Positions 4,023 to 35,182 of a stretch of DNA of 35,182 bases are shown here, piece by piece. This DNA is from a virus. The stretch is from IMG/VR virus record IMGVR_UViG_3300032160_000028, positions 1 to 35,182 of that record; one strand, written 5' to 3'. Numbering within the stretch: the stretch's first letter is position 1; each line of letters opens with the position of its first letter. Position numbers and translations under genes: made by a program. Below the pieces are notes generated by a model. The model was not told where the DNA came from. It did not search any database and was given only the letters and a program-made list of their open reading frames with translations.

Positions 4023-5243
4023 CTAGTTGCCACCGGCAGGCACCACTCGCACACGCGAGAGCGCTCCCGGTGAAAGATTGTTGATCGTTGCTTGCAAAGC
4101 CGCGTTCTGTGCTTCCAGCGCACTGACGCGCGCTGTCAAAGGCCCCAGGTCCGGCGACACGCCGTCCTTGCCATGCAAACCGGGAAGGCCGTCCTTCCCA
4201 GAGGGACCCGTGGCTCCAGGTTGTCCGTCCTTCCCGGGCTTCCCTGGATCTCCTGGTGCGCCCTTCGCTCCCGCGGGAATGGCTGCGATCCGGGCTATTA
4301 GCCGGGCTTCCATGGCGGCCAGTGCCGCGCCGTTATCGACAGGCGTGGCCGGCGGCAGCACGGGAGGCGTTGCGGGCGGTTCGATCACGGGCGGGTTCGC
4401 AGGCGGGGCCGGTACGATCGGCGCGGCCGGCGGGACTCCCTGGCCTGGCGGCCTGCGCCGGCGCAGGAAGGCGAAACAAGTCGGCGACAGCTTGCCAGCG
4501 TCAGCGCAGCGCGCGAGGAATGCCTGGACGCTCTCGACGGGTACGGCATGGGTGAAATAGGGAGGCGGCTGGTACCTGCCTTGGGGATCGTGGTCGGCAT
4601 CCGATCCCCAGGTCACGCCGATCAGTTTCCCACGCCAGAAAATGCCCCCTCCCGAACAGCCGCCCACGCACGGTTTGCTGAAGGTGAGATCTCTCCCCTG
4701 TTTGCCCGTGAAGGTCGAGTATTGCCACCACAAAGGCCCCGCCCTCGGGAAACCGAGCTGCCAGACGCTCTCCCCGGCCGTCTCGGAAGAATCCGCGAGC
4801 GGAACGATGGAGACCAGTCGCGGCGCAGGGAAACTGACCAGGGCCAGATCACTATCCTTCGAGACGGTGATCACCGTACCCGCTGCTTTCGCCCCCGCGA
4901 TCAGATAAACGGTCGCCGTCGCGGCGGAGCCCACCACGTGCTTGTTCGTGAGCGCGTAAGCGGTGCCGTTGTCCACGGCGATCACGGTCCCGGAGCCACA
5001 GTCAAACTGACCGTTGCCCACGGGACAGGCGAGCTTTACGCTGGCGGCCTGGTACAGGTTCGGCGGCTGGACGCTCTGCTGCCCCGGCGGCGCGGCGGGC
5101 TGTTGCGGCCGTTGCGGGTACTGCTGCGGCGGTTGACACGGCGGCTGGGACCCCAGCCCTGGCGACGTCGGCCATTGAGCGGGCGCGGGCGCGGGCGCCA
5201 GCAGCAGTAACACAGAGACGGTCAGGAAGATGCGCATCCGCAT
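4023..5243 (-). CDS. Secreted trypsin-like serine protease with collagen-like (Gly-X-Y) tail
   Basis: This 406-aa protein has a clear Sec signal (IFLTVSVLLLLAPAPAPAQ) and then a Pro/Gln-rich segment. A chymotrypsin-fold domain spans about 65-245, with the triad visible: His102 in TNKHVV, Asp132 in DSDLALV and Ser197 in GGCSGGGIF. A Pro-rich linker (265-302) leads to a short helix and thirteen uninterrupted Gly-X-Y triplets (325-363, with GKPGKDGQPGATGPSGKDG). A coiled-coil-like end (VSALEAQNAALQATINN) follows, which could nucleate a trimer. Collagen repeats are common in phage fibres, but joining one to a secreted S1 protease is unusual. It directly follows a holin-like gene, the usual place of an endolysin. 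Roles as lysis protease, virion-associated protease or host-modifying secreted protein are all open. Confidence 0.85.
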   Translation of the reverse strand: MRMRIFLTVSVLLLLAPAPAPAQWPTSPGLGSQPPCQPPQQYPQRPQQPAAPPGQQSVQPPNLYQAASVKLACPVGNGQFDCGSGTVIAVDNGTAYALTNKHVVGSAATATVYLIAGAKAAGTVITVSKDSDLALVSFPAPRLVSIVPLADSSETAGESVWQLGFPRAGPLWWQYSTFTGKQGRDLTFSKPCVGGCSGGGIFWRGKLIGVTWGSDADHDPQGRYQPPPYFTHAVPVESVQAFLARCADAGKLSPTCFAFLRRRRPPGQGVPPAAPIVPAPPANPPVIEPPATPPVLPPATPVDNGAALAAMEARLIARIAAIPAGAKGAPGDPGKPGKDGQPGATGPSGKDGLPGLHGKDGVSPDLGPLTARVSALEAQNAALQATINNLSPGALSRVRVVPAGGN

Positions 5244-21596: not shown

Positions 21597-22961
21597 TTAC
21601 GCCAGCTTGCAGCGCACAAACGCCTCGGCCACCTGCGGCATGCCGTCCACCTTGCGCCGCGCGATGTAGCCGATCTGGTTGGTATTCGCGTACTTCTCCA
21701 CCAGCACCAGCAGATCCATGTCCAAACTGTCGGCGATCCAGTAGTGCCGGAAGGCGCCCAGCAGGCCGACGTACAGGCCGGTCGTGAAGGTGTTGGGCGC
21801 GAACTCGCTCTCGGCCAGCGGGATCGACAGGATGCTGTCGGGGTCGCCGGCGGTGATGCCGTCCCGCCACAGGTAGCGCCCCTCGCCGTCCTTCAGGCGG
21901 CTGATCTGGTTGATGGTGTCGCGGTGGAACAGCCAGCGCAGCGACGGGTCGGCGCGGTACTGGTACTTGAGCTTGTATTTGACGGCGCGGAGGTTGTCGG
22001 CCCCGATCGCCGTGGTGGTGTTGCCCGTCGAGATGTCCTGCGCGGTGCCGATGCCGTCGTTGGTCGCGGTGAAGAGACCGAGGGGCTGCATGGCCCCGGA
22101 GCCGGTCAGGAAGGCGTTCTCCTCCAGCTCGCCGCTGTCGCGGCCAATCTCATAGCGGATGTATTCCTCGATCGGCAGGATGGCCGAGCGGAGGAGATCG
22201 CGCGAGGCTTGCAGCATGCCGGTCATGTAGTGCGGCGTCAGGCTGCGTTTGCCGTAGGCAAGGGCAGTGTCCTTGACGCTCTCGGCGTCGGTGAGCTCGC
22301 CGCCCCAGACGAAGCTTGCCATGCGCGTGGTACGCTTGACGGCGCCCAAAGTCTGTGCCGCGGTGGTGAAGGTGCGCGCGAGCTGGCGGATCCAGCGGAT
22401 CGAGTCCACGTCCATGATGAGTTCTTTCACGAACTCTTCAGGAGCGACCATGTAGCCGCCACCAGTGGCCAGGTCGGTTTGCAGGCTGGCCACGGGCTCG
22501 GAATTGTAGTGCAGGATGTCGCTGGCGTGGCCGGTGTGCAGGTAGTTGGCAAAGGCCTTGCGGTAGTCGGGCTGGTGCCGCTGCCAGGGGCGCGAGCCGT
22601 GCGCCAGCGTGATCTTCTGCGGCGTGCGCTGCCAGTTGCGCTTGATCTCGAAACTGTAGGGCGTTGTCGCGCTGGCGCCATCGCCAGGCGTAGGGCCGCC
22701 GGGTCGGTCGGGGCGGATGTTGGTGTCGAGCGGCCGGGCCAGCTCGCCCAGGGCGGCGTTGACCTCACGGCGGCGGCGGTCGTCGCCTTCGACGGTGTCG
22801 ATCTCGGCTTTGAGCGCGACGACCTCAGCCCAGGTCTTGTCGTAGAGCTCGCGGTCCTCGTTGGTCAGCGCGCGCTTCTCCGCTTCGGCCTTGTCCAGGA
22901 CGGCGTGGCACTGGCCCACGAGGGTGGAGCGCTTCTGGCGGAGTTCGAGTGTCGTTGGCAT
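21597..22961 (-). CDS. HK97-fold major capsid protein (454 aa)
   Basis: An N-terminal scaffold-like coiled coil (LELRQKRSTLVGQCHAVLDK, then WAEVVALKAEIDTVEGDD) fits the delta domain that the head protease removes. The HK97 fold follows: E-loop and P-domain region (GGGYMVAPEEFVKELIMDVD), A-domain (FLTGSGAMQPLGLFTATND) and C-terminal TNQIGYIARRKVDGMPQVAE. Length and place after an S49 protease fit HK97-like phages. The cleavage point is expected around residue 100 by family rule and is not visible here. Confidence 0.95.
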   Translation of the reverse strand: MPTTLELRQKRSTLVGQCHAVLDKAEAEKRALTNEDRELYDKTWAEVVALKAEIDTVEGDDRRRREVNAALGELARPLDTNIRPDRPGGPTPGDGASATTPYSFEIKRNWQRTPQKITLAHGSRPWQRHQPDYRKAFANYLHTGHASDILHYNSEPVASLQTDLATGGGYMVAPEEFVKELIMDVDSIRWIRQLARTFTTAAQTLGAVKRTTRMASFVWGGELTDAESVKDTALAYGKRSLTPHYMTGMLQASRDLLRSAILPIEEYIRYEIGRDSGELEENAFLTGSGAMQPLGLFTATNDGIGTAQDISTGNTTTAIGADNLRAVKYKLKYQYRADPSLRWLFHRDTINQISRLKDGEGRYLWRDGITAGDPDSILSIPLAESEFAPNTFTTGLYVGLLGAFRHYWIADSLDMDLLVLVEKYANTNQIGYIARRKVDGMPQVAEAFVRCKLA

Positions 22962-23187: not shown

Positions 23188-24198
23188 TCACTCCTCCAAG
23201 GCCAGGTCCAGCTTGCGGCGCAGGTCCTGCGCCGACGGCCCGCCGGCGGCCGGCGCCCCCAGGCTGGCAAGGACGGCGCGCAAGTCGGTGACCTGGTCAG
23301 CCAGGCCAGCCGACACCGCACGCCTGGCGGTCAGCACCCGCCCTTCCCCGTAACCGCTCCTTACCGCCGCCTCGGTCGCACCGCGGCCACGCGCGACGGC
23401 GGCAGTGAACAGCCCGTAATAGGCATCCACCCTCCGCTGCATCTCGGCCTGGGCCTCCGCGTCCAGCGGGGCATAGGGGTTGCCTTCCGCTTTGTACTTG
23501 CCGGCGGTTACCAGGGTCGTCTTGACGCCGGCCTGTTCGAGCAACCCCGACAGATCGTCATGCGCCGCCAGCACGCCGATTGAGCCCACCATGCCGCCGG
23601 GCGTGACGTGAACCGTATCGCATTGGCTCGCGAGCCAGTAAGCCGCCGAGGCACACATGCTGTCGGCGACGGCCACCAGCTTCTTCTGGCCGCGCGCTTT
23701 GTAGATCTTGGACGCCAGCTCGGGAATGCCGGCCACGCTGCCGCCGGGGGAGTCGAAGGCCAGCACCACGGCGTCGCACTGGCGGTCGGCCAGGCAATGA
23801 TCCAGCGCGCTGGCCACCTGCTCGCAAGACACACCCCAGTAGTCGCTGTGCTGGCAAAGGACGCCGTCGATCCGGACGACCGACACGTGCGTACCACCTG
23901 CCGGCAGATCGGTAGGACGGTTCGGCCCCATGCGTGCCTTCAGGTCGGCGGCACTGAGCTTGCCGTCTGCCGCCAGGTGCAAGACGTGCCGAATCTCCGC
24001 CAGCTTGGCCGGCAGGATCGCCCAGGGCGAGGAGTAGAACGCCTGGAGGACGCGGCGGTACTTCAGCACCGGCGCGCCGCCCTGGGCCTGGGAGTAGTTT
24101 TCCCACGACGTCTGGCATTCACTGTCGCTGCCGCCCTCTTCCTGGCAACGCGTCATGAAATCGTCATAGTCTTCGCCGTCTTCGGGTTTACTCGGCAT
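23188..24198 (-). CDS. S49 (SppA/ClpP-like) head maturation protease (336 aa)
   Basis: The crotonase-like protease core is clear: strand VSVVRIDGVLCQ, the oxyanion region AFDSPGGSVAG (150-157), SMCASAAYWLASQCDTV, nucleophile Ser206 in GGMVGSIGV and Lys236 in AGKYKAEGNPY, the Ser-Lys dyad of S49 enzymes. It would trim the capsid delta domain during head maturation. An acidic N-terminus (GEDYDDFMTRCQEEGG) may bind scaffold. The start overlaps the portal stop by 11 bases. Confidence 0.9.
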   Translation of the reverse strand: MPSKPEDGEDYDDFMTRCQEEGGSDSECQTSWENYSQAQGGAPVLKYRRVLQAFYSSPWAILPAKLAEIRHVLHLAADGKLSAADLKARMGPNRPTDLPAGGTHVSVVRIDGVLCQHSDYWGVSCEQVASALDHCLADRQCDAVVLAFDSPGGSVAGIPELASKIYKARGQKKLVAVADSMCASAAYWLASQCDTVHVTPGGMVGSIGVLAAHDDLSGLLEQAGVKTTLVTAGKYKAEGNPYAPLDAEAQAEMQRRVDAYYGLFTAAVARGRGATEAAVRSGYGEGRVLTARRAVSAGLADQVTDLRAVLASLGAPAAGGPSAQDLRRKLDLALEE

Positions 24199-26476
24199 GG
24201 TCCAATTCCTCCCCCATCAGGGTATCGGCCAGGGCGTTGGCCCGGTCGCGCTCCCAGCCGGCGCACAGTGCGTCGGTCTCGGCGGCGAGCGTCGCGGCTG
24301 TGGCGTGGCCGCTCATGGCCAGCAACTCCGTCCGCGAGCGTAGCACGTGGGCCGCCGCACAGTCGCGCGATGCGGCGCTCTGCGTCGTCGTGCCGCACAG
24401 TGCGGCGTGGCTGGTCAGCGCCGGCAGCAGCGCACGCTCCAGGTCGCCGCTGTAGGTCGAATAAAAGGCATCGACCCAGGTCCCGAAGGTCGCGGGCGTC
24501 TTGGCTGCCCGGCGCGCTGCCGCGCACTCGCGCCGGACCATCCGGCCCAGCGCGTCCACCACCACCGCGCGCTGGGCGGTGATCAGCGTGCCACGCTTCG
24601 CCTGGGCCTCGCTTGGCGGCGCAGCGCCCTTGGCGGCATCAGGCGGCGTGGCCTCCTGCTCCACGGCAACCTCCAGGCTGGGCCCGACCGCGATCCCGTA
24701 CTGGCGATAGGCCGCATCCTCCGGAGGCACTTCGCCGTCGCGATCGTACCACGCAGACAGAAAGTCGTCCTCACTCATGAGGTCCCGGCCCTTGTCGCGC
24801 TCTCTGCCTTCCACCCGGGCCGGATCGTGATAGATCACCTGGCCGACCGCCACGCTCAGCACCGTGACGTAGTGGTCGAGCCCGGGCCCGTACATCTCCA
24901 CCGGGCAGATGATCACCCAGCCCTTCTTGCAAAACCCGCGCAGGTCCTCGATCTCCATGTGCCCCGCGGTGACCATCAGGCCCAGGCGCGTGCACAGGTC
25001 GATGATGGCCGGCGGCTGCGTGCCGTCGGCCGGCGTCGTGCCCAGTTGCTCGATGAACGTCTCCTCGGATACGTCCGCGTCCACCACCTCGAACAGCTCG
25101 CAGGTGCCGCGCGTGTTGGCCGCGCCGCAGTCGTAGTTGTGCGTCTGCCGCACATCCGGGAAGTCGGGCACATCGGGCATCAGCACCACGGTCACGCCGG
25201 CGGCCGAGGCAGCCATGGGCTTGTCTGCGGCCGGCTCGGGCGCCGGCGGCGTGCCCGCGACGTCGGCGCGGATCATGTTGCCGTTCACCAGGTAGTGCTG
25301 GCCGCTGCCGTCCTCGGTCGGATTCATGCCGATCTTCGAGCGCCATTCGTCGGCGCTGATCACCCCGTTTTGCCGCTGCAAGTTCAGCGCGGTGTTCAGG
25401 GCCACGCCGTCGCCGCGCAGCAAGGGCTCGGTGTCGAAGTCGACACAGTAGAGCAGCCGCTCCTCGGGCGTCAGCAGCTTCTTTTCCAGCTCCTGTTTCC
25501 ACACCGTGATCCAGGGGCCCAGGCTGTAAATGATAAACTCCAGCGACTGCTGCACGATGTTGTTGTTGGTGCTCCGGGTCAGGTCCCGGATGAGGTGCGG
25601 CGGCACGTTGAACCAGCGTGCAATCTCCACCACCTGGAAGATGCGCGTCTGCATGAACTGCGCGTCGTCGGGAGAGAGCCCGAGCTGCTTGTAATCGAGG
25701 TCGCCCCACAGGACCGCCATGCGGCCGCGGTTGGTTGGGCCTTTGTGACTCTTTTCAAAGCTCTCGCGCAGCTCCTGCCGCGCTTTGTCCTTCAGCGCTG
25801 ACTTCGAGATCAACAGGCCGGTCGGGGTCGAGTTATTGCCGTGGAAACTGGCGGCGCCACGCTCGGTGCCGGATAGCAGTCCTAAACTCTCGCGCGCGTA
25901 CTGCACGACGCTGTAGCCGACGACACCATTGAAGCCGAGCCCGGGCACATGGATCATGTCCTCGCCGGGCACGATCTTCTCCCCACCCTCCAGGTCGCTC
26001 ACGCGGTAGAACAGGCCGCGCTGATCGGTCTCGGGTTGCACCCGGTGCGGGCCCAGGGGCGTCAGGCCACCGGGGAGCGGCTGGCCGCGGCCGTTGCGCT
26101 GGATGTGCGCGTAGGCGTTGCCCCAGGTGCAGAGGTGTCCTTGCCGGCTCTGCGTCCAGGTGTAAGGGGTACAGTCCTTGTAGGGGTGGAACGCCAGCAG
26201 CTCGTAGACGGGGTGATCGACGGCGGGCGTCTTGATGTGTGGCCCGGTCTTCTTGGTGAGCGTGATCGCCGACATGCCAATGCAGCTCGCCAGCAGATTG
26301 ACCGCCGCCCAGACAGCGGAAAGATTCAGCGCGCTCCATTCGGTCACGCTGACGCCGGCCGCGGTGTCGCCGCCGCCGCCGAGCATGCCGACCAGGGCCG
26401 GATCGCGGGGCGGAACCCCCTGGCTGACGTAGTATGCCGCCGGCGGCCGGCTGAAGAGGGTGCTCAGGAGTCCCAT
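24188..26476 (-). CDS. Portal protein with embedded C39-like cysteine peptidase domain (762 aa)
   Basis: Residues 1-405 are a HK97-type portal: MGLLSTLFSRPP, ALNLSAVWAAVNLLASCIGM, TWGNAYAHIQRNG, GVVGYSVVQYARESLGL, IARWFNVPPHLIRDLTRSTN. Residues about 428-600 form an extra domain with a C39-like pattern: Gln444 and Cys450 in RQTHNYDCGAA, His535 in GPGLDHYVTVLSV and Asp551 in YHDPARV. These could form oxyanion Gln plus Cys-His-Asp triad. Residues 610-762 are a helical tail. Usual portals are about 400-450 residues, so this one is a fusion. Because an S49 protease follows, the peptidase may cut portal, scaffold or host proteins. The frame is continuous. Confidence 0.9.
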   Translation of the reverse strand: MGLLSTLFSRPPAAYYVSQGVPPRDPALVGMLGGGGDTAAGVSVTEWSALNLSAVWAAVNLLASCIGMSAITLTKKTGPHIKTPAVDHPVYELLAFHPYKDCTPYTWTQSRQGHLCTWGNAYAHIQRNGRGQPLPGGLTPLGPHRVQPETDQRGLFYRVSDLEGGEKIVPGEDMIHVPGLGFNGVVGYSVVQYARESLGLLSGTERGAASFHGNNSTPTGLLISKSALKDKARQELRESFEKSHKGPTNRGRMAVLWGDLDYKQLGLSPDDAQFMQTRIFQVVEIARWFNVPPHLIRDLTRSTNNNIVQQSLEFIIYSLGPWITVWKQELEKKLLTPEERLLYCVDFDTEPLLRGDGVALNTALNLQRQNGVISADEWRSKIGMNPTEDGSGQHYLVNGNMIRADVAGTPPAPEPAADKPMAASAAGVTVVLMPDVPDFPDVRQTHNYDCGAANTRGTCELFEVVDADVSEETFIEQLGTTPADGTQPPAIIDLCTRLGLMVTAGHMEIEDLRGFCKKGWVIICPVEMYGPGLDHYVTVLSVAVGQVIYHDPARVEGRERDKGRDLMSEDDFLSAWYDRDGEVPPEDAAYRQYGIAVGPSLEVAVEQEATPPDAAKGAAPPSEAQAKRGTLITAQRAVVVDALGRMVRRECAAARRAAKTPATFGTWVDAFYSTYSGDLERALLPALTSHAALCGTTTQSAASRDCAAAHVLRSRTELLAMSGHATAATLAAETDALCAGWERDRANALADTLMGEELDHAE

Positions 26477-26732: not shown

Positions 26733-28571
26733 TTACCAGAACTCAACGCCCACTCGGTCGTCCGAGGGCGCCAGCATCGCCCGCGCCAGGCCCATCACCG
26801 CGGCCTGGATACCGTCCACCTTCTTGGTGGGATCTTCGAGCCACTGGCCGTCGGCGCCCTTGCGCCCAGGCTTCAGCGGGCGCATGCGGCCGTAGCGATC
26901 GCGCAGCACCGCGGCATTGCCGGCCTGCCAGTCGAGCACGGCGTGCCCCGGATGGCGCAGGCGCCCGCAGCGCACGAGCGCCTCGAATTCCTTGGTGGGC
27001 TCGTTGTAGCTGGCCACGTTCTGGTTGAATTGCAGCATCGTCAGGCCCCAGCCGTTCAGGGTGGTGGCGAGCTGCGTTGCCTCGCGCGGATCGTAGGCGA
27101 CCTCGACCAGGTCGAACTCCTCGGTCAGTTTCTGGCACTCCTGTTCGATGACGGCGTAATCAGTCACATTGCCGTCCGTGAAGGTGATCAGCCCCTGGCT
27201 TTCCCAGAGCCGATAGGCCACGCGGTCCTTTTGCTCGCGCTCGGCGACCGCTTCGCGCGGCATCCAGAAAAAGGGCAGCAGGGTATAGATCGCGCGGGTC
27301 ACCGGCGCGCCCGCCGGCGGTCCGACCAGCTCGTCGGCCTGGTCGGGCAGCTCGTCCCGGAACACCAGCACCAGCGCATTGAGGTCGAACCGGTTCGCCA
27401 GGTCCAGGCCACCCCAGCAGCGCTGCCCCTTCAGAGCCGCGCGCGCCACCGGCCACTTGCACGCTACCCAGATCTCGGCCGGGATCCACACGGTCACGCG
27501 CTCGGTCCAGATACAGAAGTTCAGCCGCTTCACGATGCCCTCTTTCGACGGCATGCCTTTGGCCTCACGCACCTGCTCGCGGAGATAATCGATCGACAGA
27601 ATCGAGCCGAGCCCTGGATTTGCCTTGGGCCAGACCCTCTCGTCGGTCCAGCTATCACAATCCGGGCAGGTGTCCTCGGGGAACTCACGACCGCCGGCGA
27701 GGTGCACAGCGCACGGGTCGAGGCCGCACACAAAGGCAAACCAGCCATCATCCTCGCGCTGCCCTTCCAGGATGCGCACGCTGTACTCGTGATGGTCCCA
27801 GCACACACTTTGCCGGTCGGCGCCGCTGTTCGTGATTTCAAAAATCAGCGCCGTCCGGTCGTTTTTGGTCCCTGCCCGCATCTTGTCCACGACCAGGCTG
27901 TTGGGGTGCTCGTGAATCTCGTCGAGGAGCGCCATGTGCGGCCGGGGGCCGGAGAGCTGCCGGTGCTCACTGCTGACCGGCCGCATAAACGAATCCGTGG
28001 GGACGTGCGCCAGGTTGTGCTGATCAATCTTGAGCCGCGCGCGCAACGCCGGCGAGGCCTCGGCCATGCGCCGCGCATCGCGGAAGAGGATCCCCGCCTG
28101 AAAGGACGTGGTCGCCGCCGAGTAAATCTCGCTGGCCATGCGACCGTCGGCCAAAAGCCCATATAGGCCAATGCCGGCGGCCATCGGCGTCTTGCCGTTG
28201 CCTTTGGCGATCTCGATGAACGCGGTGCGGAAGCGGCGCAGCCCCTCGGCGCCTTTCCACCCGAACAGGGACCCCACGATAAACTGCTCGAACGGTTGCA
28301 AGACGAAGGGCAGCCCATCCACTTCACCGTCCGCCGGCAGTCGAAGGTGACCGAAAAAGGTGAGGATGCGAAGGGCCGCATCCAGGTCCCAGCGCAGCCC
28401 GCGTGCCGGCCCCGTCTCCAGGTCGCGGAGATGCCGCTGGCAGGCCAGGCGCACCAGCCGGCCGGCGACGATCTCGCCGGCGACGACCACGCGTGCATAA
28501 TCGGTAACGGGATCCGTACCTGTTGGCACAGGGGGTTTAGGCTTTTTTGCCAAGGAATTGCTCGAATTCAT
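26733..28571 (-). CDS. terL: Terminase large subunit (612 aa)
   Basis: The ATPase part shows a Walker A-like AKGNGKT (122-128) and Walker B MALLDE (213-218). The nuclease part begins with Asp390 in CWGGLDLANRFD, a metal-binding residue of the RNase H-like fold; another acidic site is in VEVAYDPREA. This is the Terminase_1 (YmfN-type) family found in HK97-like phages. A cysteine cluster (C282, C287, C302, C305) looks like a metal-binding insertion between ATPase and nuclease. It overlaps the TerS stop by 35 bases. It packages DNA into the prohead using ATP. Confidence 0.95.
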   Translation of the reverse strand: MNSSNSLAKKPKPPVPTGTDPVTDYARVVVAGEIVAGRLVRLACQRHLRDLETGPARGLRWDLDAALRILTFFGHLRLPADGEVDGLPFVLQPFEQFIVGSLFGWKGAEGLRRFRTAFIEIAKGNGKTPMAAGIGLYGLLADGRMASEIYSAATTSFQAGILFRDARRMAEASPALRARLKIDQHNLAHVPTDSFMRPVSSEHRQLSGPRPHMALLDEIHEHPNSLVVDKMRAGTKNDRTALIFEITNSGADRQSVCWDHHEYSVRILEGQREDDGWFAFVCGLDPCAVHLAGGREFPEDTCPDCDSWTDERVWPKANPGLGSILSIDYLREQVREAKGMPSKEGIVKRLNFCIWTERVTVWIPAEIWVACKWPVARAALKGQRCWGGLDLANRFDLNALVLVFRDELPDQADELVGPPAGAPVTRAIYTLLPFFWMPREAVAEREQKDRVAYRLWESQGLITFTDGNVTDYAVIEQECQKLTEEFDLVEVAYDPREATQLATTLNGWGLTMLQFNQNVASYNEPTKEFEALVRCGRLRHPGHAVLDWQAGNAAVLRDRYGRMRPLKPGRKGADGQWLEDPTKKVDGIQAAVMGLARAMLAPSDDRVGVEFW

Positions 28572-29461: not shown

Positions 29462-29881
29462 TCACTCGCTGACCTTGCTTTCGAGGCGGCGGCCTTCGGA
29501 GCTGGGGGCGACGACGTAGAGCTGGCGGCCGACGCTGACGCTCAGGCCGAGGTAGTAGTCGCCGGCCATGCTGCCGGGGCGGTCGCTGATGTTGACGCCA
29601 GGGAACTTGGTCTCGAAGCTGCCGGCCAGGTAGAGCGGCCGCAGCGTCCAGCTCTGCATCGAGCCCCGGAACTCGACGGCGGTGACCACGTGGGGGCGGC
29701 CGGCCAGCGTGACAGGCCTGACGGCGACCGGGCCCGGGGTGGCCATGCCCAGGCGGGTGGCGACGTTGCCGGCTTCGAGCTGGCGCTCGCTGATGCCCAG
29801 GCCGGCCAGAGGCGCGGCGGGCAGGTCATTTTCCTCGTCAATGGCGTCGTAGAGCCGCGCCGGCTCGAAGGCGGAGGCCAT
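29462..29881 (-). CDS. Hypothetical beta-rich protein (139 aa)
   Basis: ATG 29881 opens MASAFEPARLYDAIDEENDL. A short helix (ISERQLEAGNVATRLG) and several strands follow (GPVAVRPVTLAGRPHVVTAV, then MQSWTLRPLYLAGSFETKFP, and YYLGLSVSVGRQLYVVAPSS). No known family was recognised. It overlaps the zinc-ribbon gene upstream by 44 bases in another frame, which suggests that gene's end has been eroded or the genes were joined by recombination. Confidence 0.6.
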   Translation of the reverse strand: MASAFEPARLYDAIDEENDLPAAPLAGLGISERQLEAGNVATRLGMATPGPVAVRPVTLAGRPHVVTAVEFRGSMQSWTLRPLYLAGSFETKFPGVNISDRPGSMAGDYYLGLSVSVGRQLYVVAPSSEGRRLESKVSE

Positions 29882-30101
29882 CAGGCTTTCCCAGCTTGAC
29901 GCTGAATTGCTTGCGGCACGCCTTGTCCTTGCACTGGAGCATCGCGCGAGTGACGATGTTGCCGATCTTGTCACCGCCGCATTGGGGACAGACGATCCGG
30001 CCGTCCGGCCATTTGAGAGAGACCATGTAGCGGAAGCAAACGCCAAGGTCGGCAAAATGACGGACGGCTTCAAGGAGTGTTTGCGGGCCTTGCTCGTTCA
30101 T
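29838..30101 (-). CDS. Zinc-ribbon protein, IS1595-transposase N-terminus-like (87 aa)
   Basis: The middle of this protein (FRYMVSLKWPDGRIVCPQCG, then LQCKDKACRKQFSVKLG) matches the zinc ribbon that opens IS1595-type transposases: two CxxC-like knuckles and KQFSV. Transposases continue with a GTIF segment and a DDE domain, but here the frame turns into the overlap with the next gene. So it is either a truncated transposase start or a stand-alone zinc-ribbon adaptor kept by the phage. Confidence 0.6.
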   Translation of the reverse strand: MNEQGPQTLLEAVRHFADLGVCFRYMVSLKWPDGRIVCPQCGGDKIGNIVTRAMLQCKDKACRKQFSVKLGKPDGLRLRAGAALRRH

Positions 30102-30833: not shown

Positions 30834-30871
30834 GGGTATTGCTCCTTGGTTCAGGGGTCATCGGCGCCCGG

Positions 30872-31019
30872 GGGGCCTTACCCCCCGAGCCTCGTTTGGA
30901 CCTGGAGTTTGCTAGGGTTGCTAGGACACTTAGTGTACGGCCGTCAATGGTTTTCTCATAAGTGTCCTAGCAACCCTAGCAAACTCCAGGTCCAAACGAG
31001 GCTCGGGGGGTAAGGCCCC
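30872..31019. repeat. Perfect 61-bp inverted repeat with 26-base loop
   Basis: Arms 30872-30932 and 30959-31019 are exactly complementary over 61 bases, separated by 30933-30958. It sits in the 265-bp gap between the primase-helicase stop and the next gene, with no gene inside. A perfect hairpin of this length is rarely stable in genomes. Candidate functions are replication origin or single-strand initiation hairpin, strong bidirectional terminator, or recombination site. An assembly fold-back cannot be excluded. Confidence 0.9.
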
Positions 31020-31098
31020 GGGGCCGATAGGGTCCAAAAAACGGTCACAAACAGGCTCTCTGGCGGCGCTCATTTTGGGCACTGGGTTGCTCACTTTT

Positions 31099-33489
31099 TC
31101 ACCTCAGGCAAATGCCGGTGTAGACCCACTCCCGGTCGCCCTCGGCTTGCGAGCGGCGGCGCGCCAGCTCGGGGTATTCGGCCCGTAAATTGCGCCCGAA
31201 GGTGGCGGCATTACCGGCGTGCTCGTCCTGTTCTTCGCACCATGACTTCCAGGCCTTGAAGAGCACGTCGCAACTGATCCAGCCGCCGTTCACCTGGCAG
31301 CGGTCGCGCACAAACGCGCCGACGGGGCTGAGCAGGTCGGCCAGCTCGTTGAGCAGGTCGCGGCCCGAGGGCGGCTGCTGGAAGCGGCGCCGGGCCCGCA
31401 GCCGCGCCCAGCCCTCGATCGCCCACAGCAGGATGCCGGGCAGCTCGGGCAGCAGCCGCTGCAGAAGCTCGGGGTCTTCCTTGTCCTTGAAGCTCTTGAC
31501 CAGCGGCAGGAGGATCATGCGCCCCACCAGGGCGCCGCTGGCGTCGCGCAGCCGCGGCAGCTCGTTGCTGAAAATCATGAAGCGCACCGCCAGCTTGGTG
31601 GTGACCGCCGGCAGGTTCTTGCGGTTCACCGTTTGCGCATCCTCGCCGCTGATGGACAGCAGGCTCTCGGTGATGGTGGCCACGTCGCTGCGGCCGCTGA
31701 TGCGGGCGTCCTGGATGGTGGCCAACGTTTTGCCCAGGAGCGGCGCCAGCCCGAAGTCCTTGGCCAGGCTGCCCAAGGTCGGCGCCACCACGTTGTCGTG
31801 GCCCAGCAGGGCGTGAATCACCCGCGAGATGGTGCCCTTGCCGCTGCGCTGCGGCCCGATCAGGAAGAGGATTTTTTGCTGCCGCGTGTCGGCGGTGAGC
31901 ACGTAGCCGAACCACTCTTGCAGCGTGTCGATGCACGCCTGATCGTTGGGCCAGAGGTCCTCCAGGAAGTACAGCCAGTTGGTCGGCCGCGGGGCCTGGG
32001 GGGCGAAGTCATAATCCAGGCAGTTGACCGAGAAGAACGCCGGCGTGGCCGGCCAGAGGTACTGCGTCTGGCCGGCGTGGAAAGACGGGATGTGCAGCAA
32101 ACCGTTCTGGCAGGCCAGCACCTCGCCGGCGGCGCAGGGGCCGGCGGCCTCGGCGCCGTCCTGGGGGCTGATCCAGGCCGGCGCGCGGACGCCGCCGGCG
32201 AGCACCGTCATGCTCTCGGCGGCACGCAGGGCGTCGCCGACCAGGTTGCCGGTCACCTTGCGGGCAAAGGGGACGGCCTTGTTCTTCTCGCGGGCCTCGG
32301 CCTGGTCGAGCACGTTGAGCTGGTTCATTTCCGCCTTGACGGCGCGGGTCAGCTCGGCCCGGAGCTCCTTGGCCGCCAGCGCCCGGTAGGCGCCGCGCGT
32401 CCAGCGCCACCACTCCTCGCGCCAGAAGCGCAGGGTCAGTCCCTGCTCGTGCGTGCAGCGGGCCTTGAGGTAGAGCGTGGCCAGGCGGTGCGGATCGTCG
32501 GGCGCCTCGAGCGGGCCGGCGCCCTCGCCCGCGCCCTCGTCCCCCCCGGCATGCGGCTCGGAGTGGGGCTTGCCGTTGCCGTTGCTGCTGCTCATCGCCT
32601 CCATGCCGCGCAGGTACTGCTTGATCGAGCGGTCGAAATCAGGCATATCGACTTTGCCGTTCCTCAGGACCTCGCGGCACAGGGCGTAATCGTCAGGGTT
32701 GACGCGGGCCAGCTCGGCGAGCTGCAGCATGAGCTGCGGGTAGCGGAAGATGGCCGCGGTCCCATGTTGAGACACGGCCACGGTGACCAGGTTCTCCAGG
32801 CTGCTGGGCGGCCGCGGCGATGGCAGCTCGGCAGCGGCCAGACTGAGAGGTTCAAGCTGCAGCCGCGGCACTTCCAGCGCGCGGGCCACGGCCACAGCGG
32901 CTTGCCAGCGTGTCTTGAAATTGGCCGCGTCCTGGCAGTGCAGCGCGCTCGGGTCCTTGACGCCGGCGATGGCCAGCTCGAACACCTGGCCGCCAAAGCC
33001 CAGCGCCCCCAACCGGGCGGCGATGTCCTTGACGAAGCGCGTCGCCGTCTCGTCCAGCTCGCGCCAGATATAGACCCGGTCGACGCCGGCCAGGAAGTCG
33101 GCCTGCAAGGTCTGGTGATTGCTGGCGCCGGGGATGCCCAGGCCGGGCAGGTTGTAGAGCCACAGCGTCCAGCAATCGCTTTCGCCCTCGACGATCGGCA
33201 GGTAGCCCAGCCGCGCCGCCTGGTGCAGGCGGTCCTGACCGTAGGCAAAGCTGCCTTTGCCCGGGCCCCAGAAGGTGGTGCCGTCCTTGATGGCCGCGGC
33301 GGTGCGGATGCGCGTGCGCAGCAGCTCGCCGGCCTGGTCGCGGTAGGGGATGGCGACGCCTTTGGGGCTGTCCTCGAGACCCAGCTCCCGCAGCCAGGCG
33401 GCGGGGAGCTGCTTGTGCCTGGCGAGTGCCTCGACGGTCAGCACGGCCGGACGTGCCGGGGCCTGGCTACCGTTGGTTTGATGGGCCAT
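31099..33489 (-). CDS. Phage P4/D5-type primase-helicase (796 aa)
   Basis: A TOPRIM-like region lies near 98-145 (LPIVEGESDCWTLW with Glu101 and DRVYIWRELDETAT with Asp138). After a linker comes the D5 N-like domain, then an SF3 helicase: Walker A GPQRSGKGT (545-553), Walker B TIQDARI (Asp594), sensor IFSNELPRL and Arg657. The C-terminal winged-helix-like part (WISCDVLFKAWKSWCEEQDE) follows. ATG 33489 gives MAHQTNGS; the upstream extension lacks support. It would prime and unwind DNA during phage replication. The only replication gene recognised, so replication likely depends on host polymerase. Confidence 0.9.
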   Translation of the reverse strand: MAHQTNGSQAPARPAVLTVEALARHKQLPAAWLRELGLEDSPKGVAIPYRDQAGELLRTRIRTAAAIKDGTTFWGPGKGSFAYGQDRLHQAARLGYLPIVEGESDCWTLWLYNLPGLGIPGASNHQTLQADFLAGVDRVYIWRELDETATRFVKDIAARLGALGFGGQVFELAIAGVKDPSALHCQDAANFKTRWQAAVAVARALEVPRLQLEPLSLAAAELPSPRPPSSLENLVTVAVSQHGTAAIFRYPQLMLQLAELARVNPDDYALCREVLRNGKVDMPDFDRSIKQYLRGMEAMSSSNGNGKPHSEPHAGGDEGAGEGAGPLEAPDDPHRLATLYLKARCTHEQGLTLRFWREEWWRWTRGAYRALAAKELRAELTRAVKAEMNQLNVLDQAEAREKNKAVPFARKVTGNLVGDALRAAESMTVLAGGVRAPAWISPQDGAEAAGPCAAGEVLACQNGLLHIPSFHAGQTQYLWPATPAFFSVNCLDYDFAPQAPRPTNWLYFLEDLWPNDQACIDTLQEWFGYVLTADTRQQKILFLIGPQRSGKGTISRVIHALLGHDNVVAPTLGSLAKDFGLAPLLGKTLATIQDARISGRSDVATITESLLSISGEDAQTVNRKNLPAVTTKLAVRFMIFSNELPRLRDASGALVGRMILLPLVKSFKDKEDPELLQRLLPELPGILLWAIEGWARLRARRRFQQPPSGRDLLNELADLLSPVGAFVRDRCQVNGGWISCDVLFKAWKSWCEEQDEHAGNAATFGRNLRAEYPELARRRSQAEGDREWVYTGICLR

Positions 33490-33582
33490 CCGTGCTATAA
33501 TCCGGAGCGACTTTGGGGATGATGAAGCGGCCGGCCGGTGCACACCCGCGCCGGCTGCTTTGTTTCACGACGCCTCGTGCCA

Positions 33583-33988: not shown

Positions 33989-34329
33989 GCGTCCTCCTTG
34001 GTCAGAGCGATCCGCACCGCTTCGTCGTGGCCGGCCACGGCCTCGACCAGGCTGCTGTAGCGCTGGCACCAGCCGTCGCGAGGCCCGTTGAAAATCATCG
34101 TTTCCCACAAGAGCGGCGGCCCGTTGCCAAACTGGTGGTCCAGACCGAGAAAAACGGTCGAGACCGTGATATCGTCAGGGACCGTGATATAGCCAGGCAA
34201 GACCGTTTTGGCGACGAAGACCGTTTTGGCGACGGCACGCTCCGCGCTCTCGTACCACCGGGCCCAGCGCAAGAGGTCAGGTTCGAGCACCGGCTTGCCA
34301 TCCACCAGGATGTAGTTACCTCTTCTCAT
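33985..34329 (-). CDS. Conserved-looking phage early protein (114 aa)
   Basis: ATG 34329 overlaps the upstream stop by 4 bases. MRRGNYILVDGKPVLEPDLL is followed by strands ITVSTVFLGLDHQFGNGPPL and ETMIFNGPRDGWCQRYSSLV, a pattern I recall from small phage hypothetical proteins (FLGLDHxFGxGPP). Function unknown. A run of near-repeat codons (VAKTVFVAKTVLPGYITVPD) marks a small internal duplication. Confidence 0.7.
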   Translation of the reverse strand: MRRGNYILVDGKPVLEPDLLRWARWYESAERAVAKTVFVAKTVLPGYITVPDDITVSTVFLGLDHQFGNGPPLLWETMIFNGPRDGWCQRYSSLVEAVAGHDEAVRIALTKEDA

Positions 34330-34625
34330 ACCGCTCCCTCGCCATGGTGGCGGTCGCTGGCCGGGTGGCGGCAACCGTTCTTGCCGGCCCCGGCGTTTTG
34401 CGGGCAGTCGCGGGCGTAGTGCTCGATCTGCTCGAGTAGCTGTCGAACGATGTCCCGGTTGATCGGCAGGCCCACGGCGTGGGCCACGAAGGCGACGATG
34501 CCGATGCGCTCGAGGAGGCAGGGCAGGCCGGCGTGGGCCGCCGCTTCGTGCTCGTCGAGCACGGCGACGATCTGGTCGCGGGCAGCGCCCATGGCGACCG
34601 CGAGCTGTTCAGGCGTGCGGCTCAT
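34326..34625 (-). CDS. Small hypothetical protein (99 aa); its 3' part lies in the 127-bp repeat
   Basis: ATG 34625 with GGAGG upstream opens MSRTPEQLAVAMGAARDQIV, a helical protein (EHEAAAHAGLPCLLERIGIV) with a tail rich in Cys/His (HYARDCPQNAGAGKNGCRHP). The 127 bases from 34349 to 34475 recur exactly at the window end. The upstream truncated methyltransferase is in the same frame, so read-through would make a fusion. Function unknown. Confidence 0.65.
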   Translation of the reverse strand: MSRTPEQLAVAMGAARDQIVAVLDEHEAAAHAGLPCLLERIGIVAFVAHAVGLPINRDIVRQLLEQIEHYARDCPQNAGAGKNGCRHPASDRHHGEGAV

Positions 34626-34654
34626 CCTCGTCCTCCGTGTAGGGTACTCTGCGT

Positions 34655-34934
34655 TCACGTCAGGATCCTCCGCAGCCCGACCAGCTCGGCCGGCGGCAGT
34701 TGCTCGGATCACAAGAGCGAGATTGATAAGGTCGCCGTAGAGATCCGAAACCGTTTCCTGGGAGCATGGAGGTTTCGCCAGCAGCACGGCCATCGCTCCA
34801 CAGAAGACCTCCCAGTACGAGCGGTGGTCTCCCAGTTCGATGACGATGCGGTCCGCCATCGAGCGCTTGCCGCCGAAGTAGGGTAGAAGCGCGGTGATGG
34901 TCGGGGTCAGAAACTCGGCTGGTTCGGAGCGCAT
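34655..34934 (-). pseudogene. D12-class DNA adenine methyltransferase, truncated N-terminal fragment
   Basis: ATG 34934 opens the AdoMet-binding part of a D12 (Dam-like) methylase: LLPYFGGKRSMADRIV and YWEVFCGAMAVLLAKPP, then DLYGDLINLAL. After about 78 residues the family pattern ends abruptly. The DNA then reads, in another frame, EQLPPAELVGLRRILT followed by a stop, which looks like the natural end of some protein. This suggests an internal deletion near 34705, or an assembly join. A functional enzyme needs about 270 residues including the DPPY motif, which is absent here. Confidence 0.7.
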
Positions 34935-35182
34935 GGCGGCTCTTCCTCCTCGATCACGGTCACCTGGATACGCACCCGTCGCCCGGAAAGGAGCCGGGCC
35001 TCGAAGCTGTCGAACGCGGGCTCGCTGGGCAAGCCCAGAGACGCGATTTTCACGAGGCGGTCGCTGGCCGGGTGGCGGCAACCGTTCTTGCCGGCCCCGG
35101 CGTTTTGCGGGCAGTCGCGGGCGTAGTGCTCGATCTGCTCGAGTAGCTGTCGAACGATGTCCCGGTTGATCGGCAGGCCCAC
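34907..35182 (-). CDS. Partial gene at window end sharing the 127-bp repeat
   Basis: The frame is open at the window end and shares 42 residues with the neighbouring gene (GLPINRDIVRQLLEQIEHYA onward) up to the repeat border. It then gets a different end (VKIASLGLPSEPAFDSFEAR, then RVRIQVTVIEEEEPPC). A GTG at 35053 may start this last 48-residue part as a separate gene. It overlaps the methyltransferase start by 28 bases. The joined form may be an artefact of the repeat. Confidence 0.4.
   Translation of the reverse strand: MGLPINRDIVRQLLEQIEHYARDCPQNAGAGKNGCRHPASDRLVKIASLGLPSEPAFDSFEARLLSGRRVRIQVTVIEEEEPPCAPNQPSF

What the first reader, a model, noticed from the sequence alone, without database searches (positions are those of the whole stretch)
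24677..25195. Portal protein carries an embedded C39-like cysteine peptidase domain
Seen: one continuous 762-residue frame. Residues 1-405 read as an HK97-type portal, and residues about 428-600 hold Gln444, Cys450 (NYDCGAA), His535 (GLDHYVTV) and Asp551 (YHDP). Known: C39-like peptidases use a Gln oxyanion residue and a Cys-His-Asp triad in that order. Inference: twelve portal copies would place a ring of cysteine peptidases at the packaging vertex. It could mature scaffold or portal, or be delivered with DNA to cut a host protein, although a separate S49 head protease follows immediately.
Basis: partly seen in the sequence, partly recalled or inferred. Interest (0 to 1): 0.78.

Follow-up and report, generated by a model that had tools for sequence, protein, structure and literature searches.

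The report
Phage portal carrying a cysteine peptidase
In two related uncultivated phages the ring protein that admits DNA into the virus head carries, spliced between its two structural parts, a complete bacteriocin-processing-type (C39) cysteine peptidase, so an enzyme is probably held inside the head, although what it cuts is unknown.

Summary
Pfam Peptidase_C39 passes its curated cut-off. Gln444, Cys450, His535 and Asp551 align with the residues of ComA and PeiR. A model (pLDDT 85) matches C39 peptidases at Z 18-19. It is not an assembly error: a second contig carries it, and so does a distinct phage (L082), whose portal and C39 domains are each about 43% identical to these and keep all four residues. 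The two are sisters in portal and C39 trees, so the fusion arose once and has been kept. Relatives fill the same slot with short linkers or long coiled coils. Enzyme domains fused to portal or MuF proteins are known in kind; I found no report of a C39 peptidase on a portal. Function is undecided: processing or self-release inside the head is slightly favoured over a host-directed effector. A separate S49 head protease follows, and relatives manage without C39, so general head maturation is unlikely.

The parts
24188..26476 (-). Portal-C39-tail fusion gene, 762 aa, one frame
   Evidence: ORF; same protein on a second contig at 99.99% DNA identity over 14,286 bases; homologous fusion in L082
25262..26476 (-). 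HK97-type portal core, residues 1-405
   Evidence: Pfam PF04860 9e-85; TIGR01537 246.8 bits against cut-off 112; phrog_12 portal 2e-99
24641..25183 (-). C39-type cysteine peptidase domain, residues ~432-612; Gln444, Cys450, His535, Asp551
   Evidence: Pfam PF03412 above its cut-off; conserved residues in 28 rows; model pLDDT 85.2, pTM 0.82; Foldseek and VIA-align to PCAT1, ComA and PeiR
24191..24592 (-). C-terminal helical tail, residues ~629-762, related to the MuF-like end of portal-MuF fusions
   Evidence: Shared with portals L060, L071-L081; a profile of it finds the same region in L101, L138 and L142, which go on to a MuF-type Cys/His end. The window tail itself has no Pfam MuF match
23188..24198 (-). 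S49 head maturation protease gene; start overlaps the portal stop by 11 bases
   Evidence: Pfam PF01343 1.4e-35 and phrog_53 2e-81
21597..22961 (-). HK97-fold major capsid protein
   Evidence: Pfam PF05065 6.8e-48
26733..28571 (-). Terminase large subunit
   Evidence: Pfam TerL_nuclease 1.8e-32 and TerL_ATPase 7.4e-27

Best explanation
Shown: this is a portal protein with an intact C39-type cysteine peptidase placed in the variable linker between the portal core and a MuF-like helical tail. It was acquired once in a small phage lineage and has been kept since. Inferred: the portal's C-terminal side (crown) faces the inside of the head, so up to twelve peptidase domains sit there, each tethered by flexible proline-rich linkers. 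Most likely the peptidase works inside the assembling or filled head and cuts nearby protein, above all its own linkers. That would free the C39 and/or MuF-like piece from the ring, as releasing peptidases do in polyvalent and polymorphic-toxin proteins. The freed piece could then leave with the DNA. Identity and likely catalytic competence: about 0.95. The processing or self-release role: about 0.4.
For: Domain, tetrad and fold. Kept fusion: L082 C39 is 42.4% identical against 43.2% for the portal core and 36.1% for the tail, all four residues present. The two are sisters in the C39 tree (100/99) and the portal tree (97), so the domain has been conserved about as strongly as the portal itself. 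Position exactly between the core and a tail shared by relatives. Portal crown exposed at the inner capsid surface: PMC10359639. Papain-like peptidases as releasing domains, and a papain-like domain fused to MuF: PMC3482391. Peptidase-mediated release in polyvalent proteins: PMC5512222.
Against: No activity data. No conserved cleavage motif is visible in the linkers (linker 1 is 20% identical between the two phages). Relatives with the same core and tail lack any peptidase in the slot, so release of the tail is not generally needed. A separate S49 protease could do the cutting. Only two distinct examples are known.
Confidence: 0.4

Rival explanations
1. The C39 domain is an effector carried in the head and delivered with the DNA to cut a host protein, for example a defence or growth-control protein. 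This is the portal counterpart of MuF toxins and polyvalent proteins.
For: The slot is variable and dispensable between relatives. PBECR, 2H phosphoesterase and InPase domains fused to portal domains are already interpreted as injected effectors (PMC5512222). A papain-like Tox-PL1 domain is fused to MuF (PMC3482391). Papain-like and C39-like toxins from CdiA and a DUF4150 effector match the fold at Z 14-15.
Against: Portals stay in the virion, so release is needed first. The domain is internal, not C-terminal. The portal and S49 genes overlap in both phages, leaving no adjacent immunity gene. The domain has been kept rather than exchanged between the two phages.
Confidence: 0.33
2. A general capsid maturation protease that processes scaffold, capsid and portal, replacing or assisting the head protease.
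For: It is at the right place and time inside the prohead. In this lineage the neighbouring protease is S49, whereas eight C39-less relatives scanned have S78.
Against: A full S49 head protease is present in both C39 phages. S49 proteases also occur near C39-less portals (L080, L110, L154, L058 and others). Relatives with the same portal and tail mature without C39. The S78-to-S49 difference is one event on one lineage and has no statistical weight.
Confidence: 0.12
3. A catalytically idle domain used as a spacer or binding module, exchangeable with the coiled coils found in the same slot.
For: Other members put coiled coils or plain linkers of very different length there. The window departs from the family at two positions near the active site (Gln to Glu and Trp to Tyr in the IQAW motif).
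Against: All four catalytic residues and the fold survive about 57% divergence in both fusions.
Confidence: 0.13

Closest known systems
Portal and MuF fusions with effector domains (polyvalent proteins; PBECR, 2H, InPase on portal domains; PMC5512222)
   Same: A portal-domain protein of a terminase-portal phage with an extra enzyme domain, predicted to sit in the head
   Different: The enzyme is a C39 cysteine peptidase, inserted internally before a MuF-like tail; the words C39 and papain do not occur in that paper's main text
MuF polymorphic toxins and Tox-PL1-MuF fusions (PMC5576092, PMC3482391)
   Same: Papain-fold peptidase in one polypeptide with a MuF-type head component
   Different: Here the carrier is the portal itself, the peptidase precedes a degenerate MuF-like tail, and no immunity gene adjoins it
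C39 peptidase domains of ComA and PCAT transporters
   Same: Fold (Z 17-19) and the Gln, Cys, His, Asp set
   Different: No ABC transporter; no leader peptide substrate known; a C-terminal extension beyond the transporter domain's end
Standalone C39 proteins of bacteria, archaea and huge phages (e.g. LR756511.1, LR756501.1)
   Same: Same domain over nearly its full length, including the C-terminal WHD...GIAV motifs
   Different: They are separate, often apparently secreted, proteins and are not fused to virion parts
PeiR pseudomurein endoisopeptidase (8z4h)
   Same: Top structural and profile hit; its Cys90 aligns with Cys450
   Different: A wall-cutting lysin; nothing here points to a wall-directed role at the portal crown

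Membership tests
HK97-type portal protein | Portal profile above curated cut-off | tested here: met
   PF04860 285 bits (cut-off 39.1); TIGR01537 246.8 bits (cut-off 112)
HK97-type portal protein | Gene order terminase, portal, head protease, capsid | tested here: met
   TerL, portal, S49, capsid in the window and in L082
Peptidase family C39 | Family profile above curated cut-off | tested here: met
   PF03412 26.4 bits for the isolated domain, 22.3 in the whole protein, cut-off 22; L082 30.7 bits
Peptidase family C39 | Gln oxyanion residue and Cys-His-Asp triad in order | tested here: met
   Gln444, Cys450, His535, Asp551; aligned with ComA and PeiR
Peptidase family C39 | C39 papain-like fold | tested here: met
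   Model pLDDT 85; PCAT1 Z 18.8, ComA Z 18.2, PeiR Z 18.6
Peptidase family C39 | Peptidase activity | not testable with these tools
   Needs the purified domain
C39 bacteriocin-processing transporter | Fusion to an ABC transporter cutting double-glycine leaders | tested here: not met
   Fused to a portal; no transporter domain
MuF family | Pfam PF04233 above cut-off | tested here: not met
   No match in the window tail; related portal ends L101 and L147 reach 23.7 and 24.9 bits, below 29.6
MuF family | Homology of the tail to the MuF-like end of portal-MuF fusions | tested here: inconclusive
   The tail profile finds L101 (8e-12) and L138 (1e-11) in a small local search; those ends match phrog_2468 head morphogenesis at about 1e-7
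MuF polymorphic toxin system | Toxin domain C-terminal to MuF | tested here: not met
   The peptidase lies before the tail
MuF polymorphic toxin system | Adjacent immunity gene | tested here: not met
   The portal stop overlaps the S49 start in both phages; a distant immunity gene was not excluded
Polyvalent (injected) phage protein | Packaged and injected with DNA | not testable with these tools
   Needs virion and infected-cell proteomics

The most novel reading that the evidence does not exclude
A self-processing portal: one gene makes both the DNA gate and a cysteine peptidase that cuts itself and the MuF-like piece loose inside the head, so that a portal-derived enzyme is ejected into the host with the genome.
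Probability: 0.25. Interest if true: 0.75.

Novelty: new variant of a known kind. Interest (0 to 1): 0.5.

Why it matters
It adds a peptidase to the small set of enzymes known to ride on phage portals. It also points to a slot between the portal core and a MuF-like tail that phages fill with different modules. If the peptidase acts in the head, the portal is not only a gate and motor dock but also carries an enzyme, and the slot would be a natural place to look for further packaged enzymes.

Tried and rejected
Assembly artefact: rejected, since a second contig and a divergent phage carry the fusion. Full-length structure prediction from one sequence gave a useless model (pLDDT 35), so the domain was folded with 28 sequences instead. 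Searches of INPHARED phages with the C39 and tail part found only standalone C39 genes of huge phages, and none with the tail alone. Portal matches there never cover 80% of the protein. Exact-word scans with the window protein alone found only the same phage and nothing in genomes. The tail profile in about 890 genomes of three phyla, reached through standalone-C39 loci, found nothing, so the host remains unknown; there was no positive control. The viral structure library gave lysins and giant-virus proteins but no portal; this is no proof of absence. The linkers were inspected for a shared cleavage motif and none was seen. In one tail alignment the L082 row was taken out of frame and is ignored. 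Literature searches for C39 with portal returned no such fusion, within an open-access library only.

Full report
Observation. The gene lies on the minus strand, 24188-26476, and encodes 762 residues from its ATG. Pfam, NCBIfam and PHROGs call the first ~405 residues an HK97-type portal. Residues 441-576 match Peptidase_C39 above the curated cut-off. The surrounding genes are a terminase large subunit, an S49 head protease and an HK97 capsid protein, so the portal is in its usual place. A second IMG/VR contig is 99.993% identical over 14,286 bases.

What the domain is. Relatives were gathered through standalone C39 proteins in huge phages and then in bacterial, archaeal and viral contigs. In a 28-row alignment Gln, His, Asp-Pro and a Trp are invariant, and Cys is kept in all but one row. 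All 28 rows match Peptidase_C39. A profile from them finds solved structures of PeiR (E 1e-12), ComA and PCAT-type peptidase domains; PeiR's Cys90, whose alanine mutant is deposited, aligns with Cys450. The domain model has pLDDT 85.2 and pTM 0.82. Foldseek and VIA-align put it with PCAT1 (Z 18.8), PeiR (18.6) and ComA (18.2). The fold and active-site residues are therefore those of a C39 peptidase; activity itself is not shown.

What surrounds it. A conserved helical tail of about 135 residues follows the peptidase. The same tail ends portals in other uncultivated phages. I took the 80 nearest portals in viral contigs, added those already found, and screened 90 distinct portals with local profiles. 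About half have the tail. Between core and tail they carry short proline-rich or acidic linkers (L071, L088, L097, L080), long coiled coils (L060, L072, L077, L086, L113 and many others), and in two cases, the window and L082, a C39 domain. Other portals with a related tail (L101, L131, L138, L142, L147) run on into a CPxC...HPPxHxxCxC-type end that weakly matches Mu F (PF04233 at 9e-5 and 4e-5 for L101 and L147, below cut-off; phrog_2468 head morphogenesis down to 7e-8 for L138). I therefore read the tail as MuF-like, not as a proven MuF member.

A second fusion. L082 (IMGVR_UViG_3300044686_000006) has the same gene order: terminase 54% identical, S49 53%, capsid 61%. Its portal core is 43.2%, its C39 domain 42.4% and its tail 36.1% identical to the window's. 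All four active-site residues are kept, and Pfam scores the domain at 30.7 bits. The two are sisters in the C39 tree (100/99) and in the portal tree (97). The simplest history is one acquisition followed by long joint descent, with the peptidase conserved about as well as the portal core. That argues against a chance or decaying insertion.

How it probably works (inference). [quoted passage not shown] that the C-terminal extension starts at that end is my own knowledge of portal topology. Twelve tethered peptidases would thus face the packaged DNA. A general maturation role is unlikely: S49 is present in both C39 phages, S49 also accompanies C39-less portals, and C39-less relatives use S78 proteases. 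Two roles remain close. One is processing of the portal's own linkers, freeing the C39 and/or MuF-like part. The other is an effector that enters the host. Portal and MuF fusions with effector domains (PMC5512222) and a papain-like domain on MuF (PMC3482391) are precedents for both; MuF-linked proteases have been proposed to bias lysis or lysogeny (PMC5576092). I lean slightly to processing or self-release because the domain sits between core and tail, because C39 enzymes naturally cut leader peptides, and because it is kept in step with the portal. No shared linker motif supports this directly.

Novelty. Enzyme domains on portals are known in kind. A C39 peptidase embedded in a portal was not found in the phage collection or in the papers searched. 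I call it a new variant of a known kind. The case rests on two distinct phages from metagenomes, without hosts.

Noticed in passing
L060, L072, L076, L077, L086, L087, L096, L099, L109, L113, L116, L117, L125, L137 (portal ORFs): Portals of many uncultivated phages carry a coiled-coil-like stretch of very variable length (roughly 150-400 aa) between portal core and tail, in the same slot as the C39 domain.
   Followed up: partly
window 23188-24198; L082 5827-6762; L071, L077, L084, L086, L087, L088, L096, L101: Both C39-portal phages have an S49 head protease next to the portal, while eight C39-less relatives scanned have an S78 protease there; S49 also occurs near some other C39-less portals.
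   Followed up: partly
window 30865-31026: Near-perfect intergenic inverted repeat, 68-nt arms, 96% complementary, 26-nt loop, downstream of the end of the primase-like gene at 31099-33543 (-).
   Followed up: no
window 4023-5243 (-): Protein with an apparent signal peptide, a trypsin-like domain (Trypsin_2, 51 bits, with TNKHV and GGCSGGG motifs) and collagen-like GXX repeats, in a phage genome.
   Followed up: no
window 29838-30101 (-): Short ORF resembling the zinc-ribbon N-terminus of an IS1595-type transposase, apparently truncated.
   Followed up: no
window 34326-35081 (-): Possible D12-class N6-adenine DNA methyltransferase (27.1 bits, cut-off 22).
   Followed up: no
L033, L035, L036, L038, L039: Apparently secreted C39-like proteins of clostridial genomes in which the catalytic Cys position reads Ser (YTSG or YNSG), perhaps inactive or altered enzymes.
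   Followed up: no
L004 4938-5525; L005 4962-5549; L007 3971-4552: Standalone C39-type peptidase genes in large phage genomes (records of 595 kb and 735 kb, and a 153-kb viral contig), of unknown role.
   Followed up: partly
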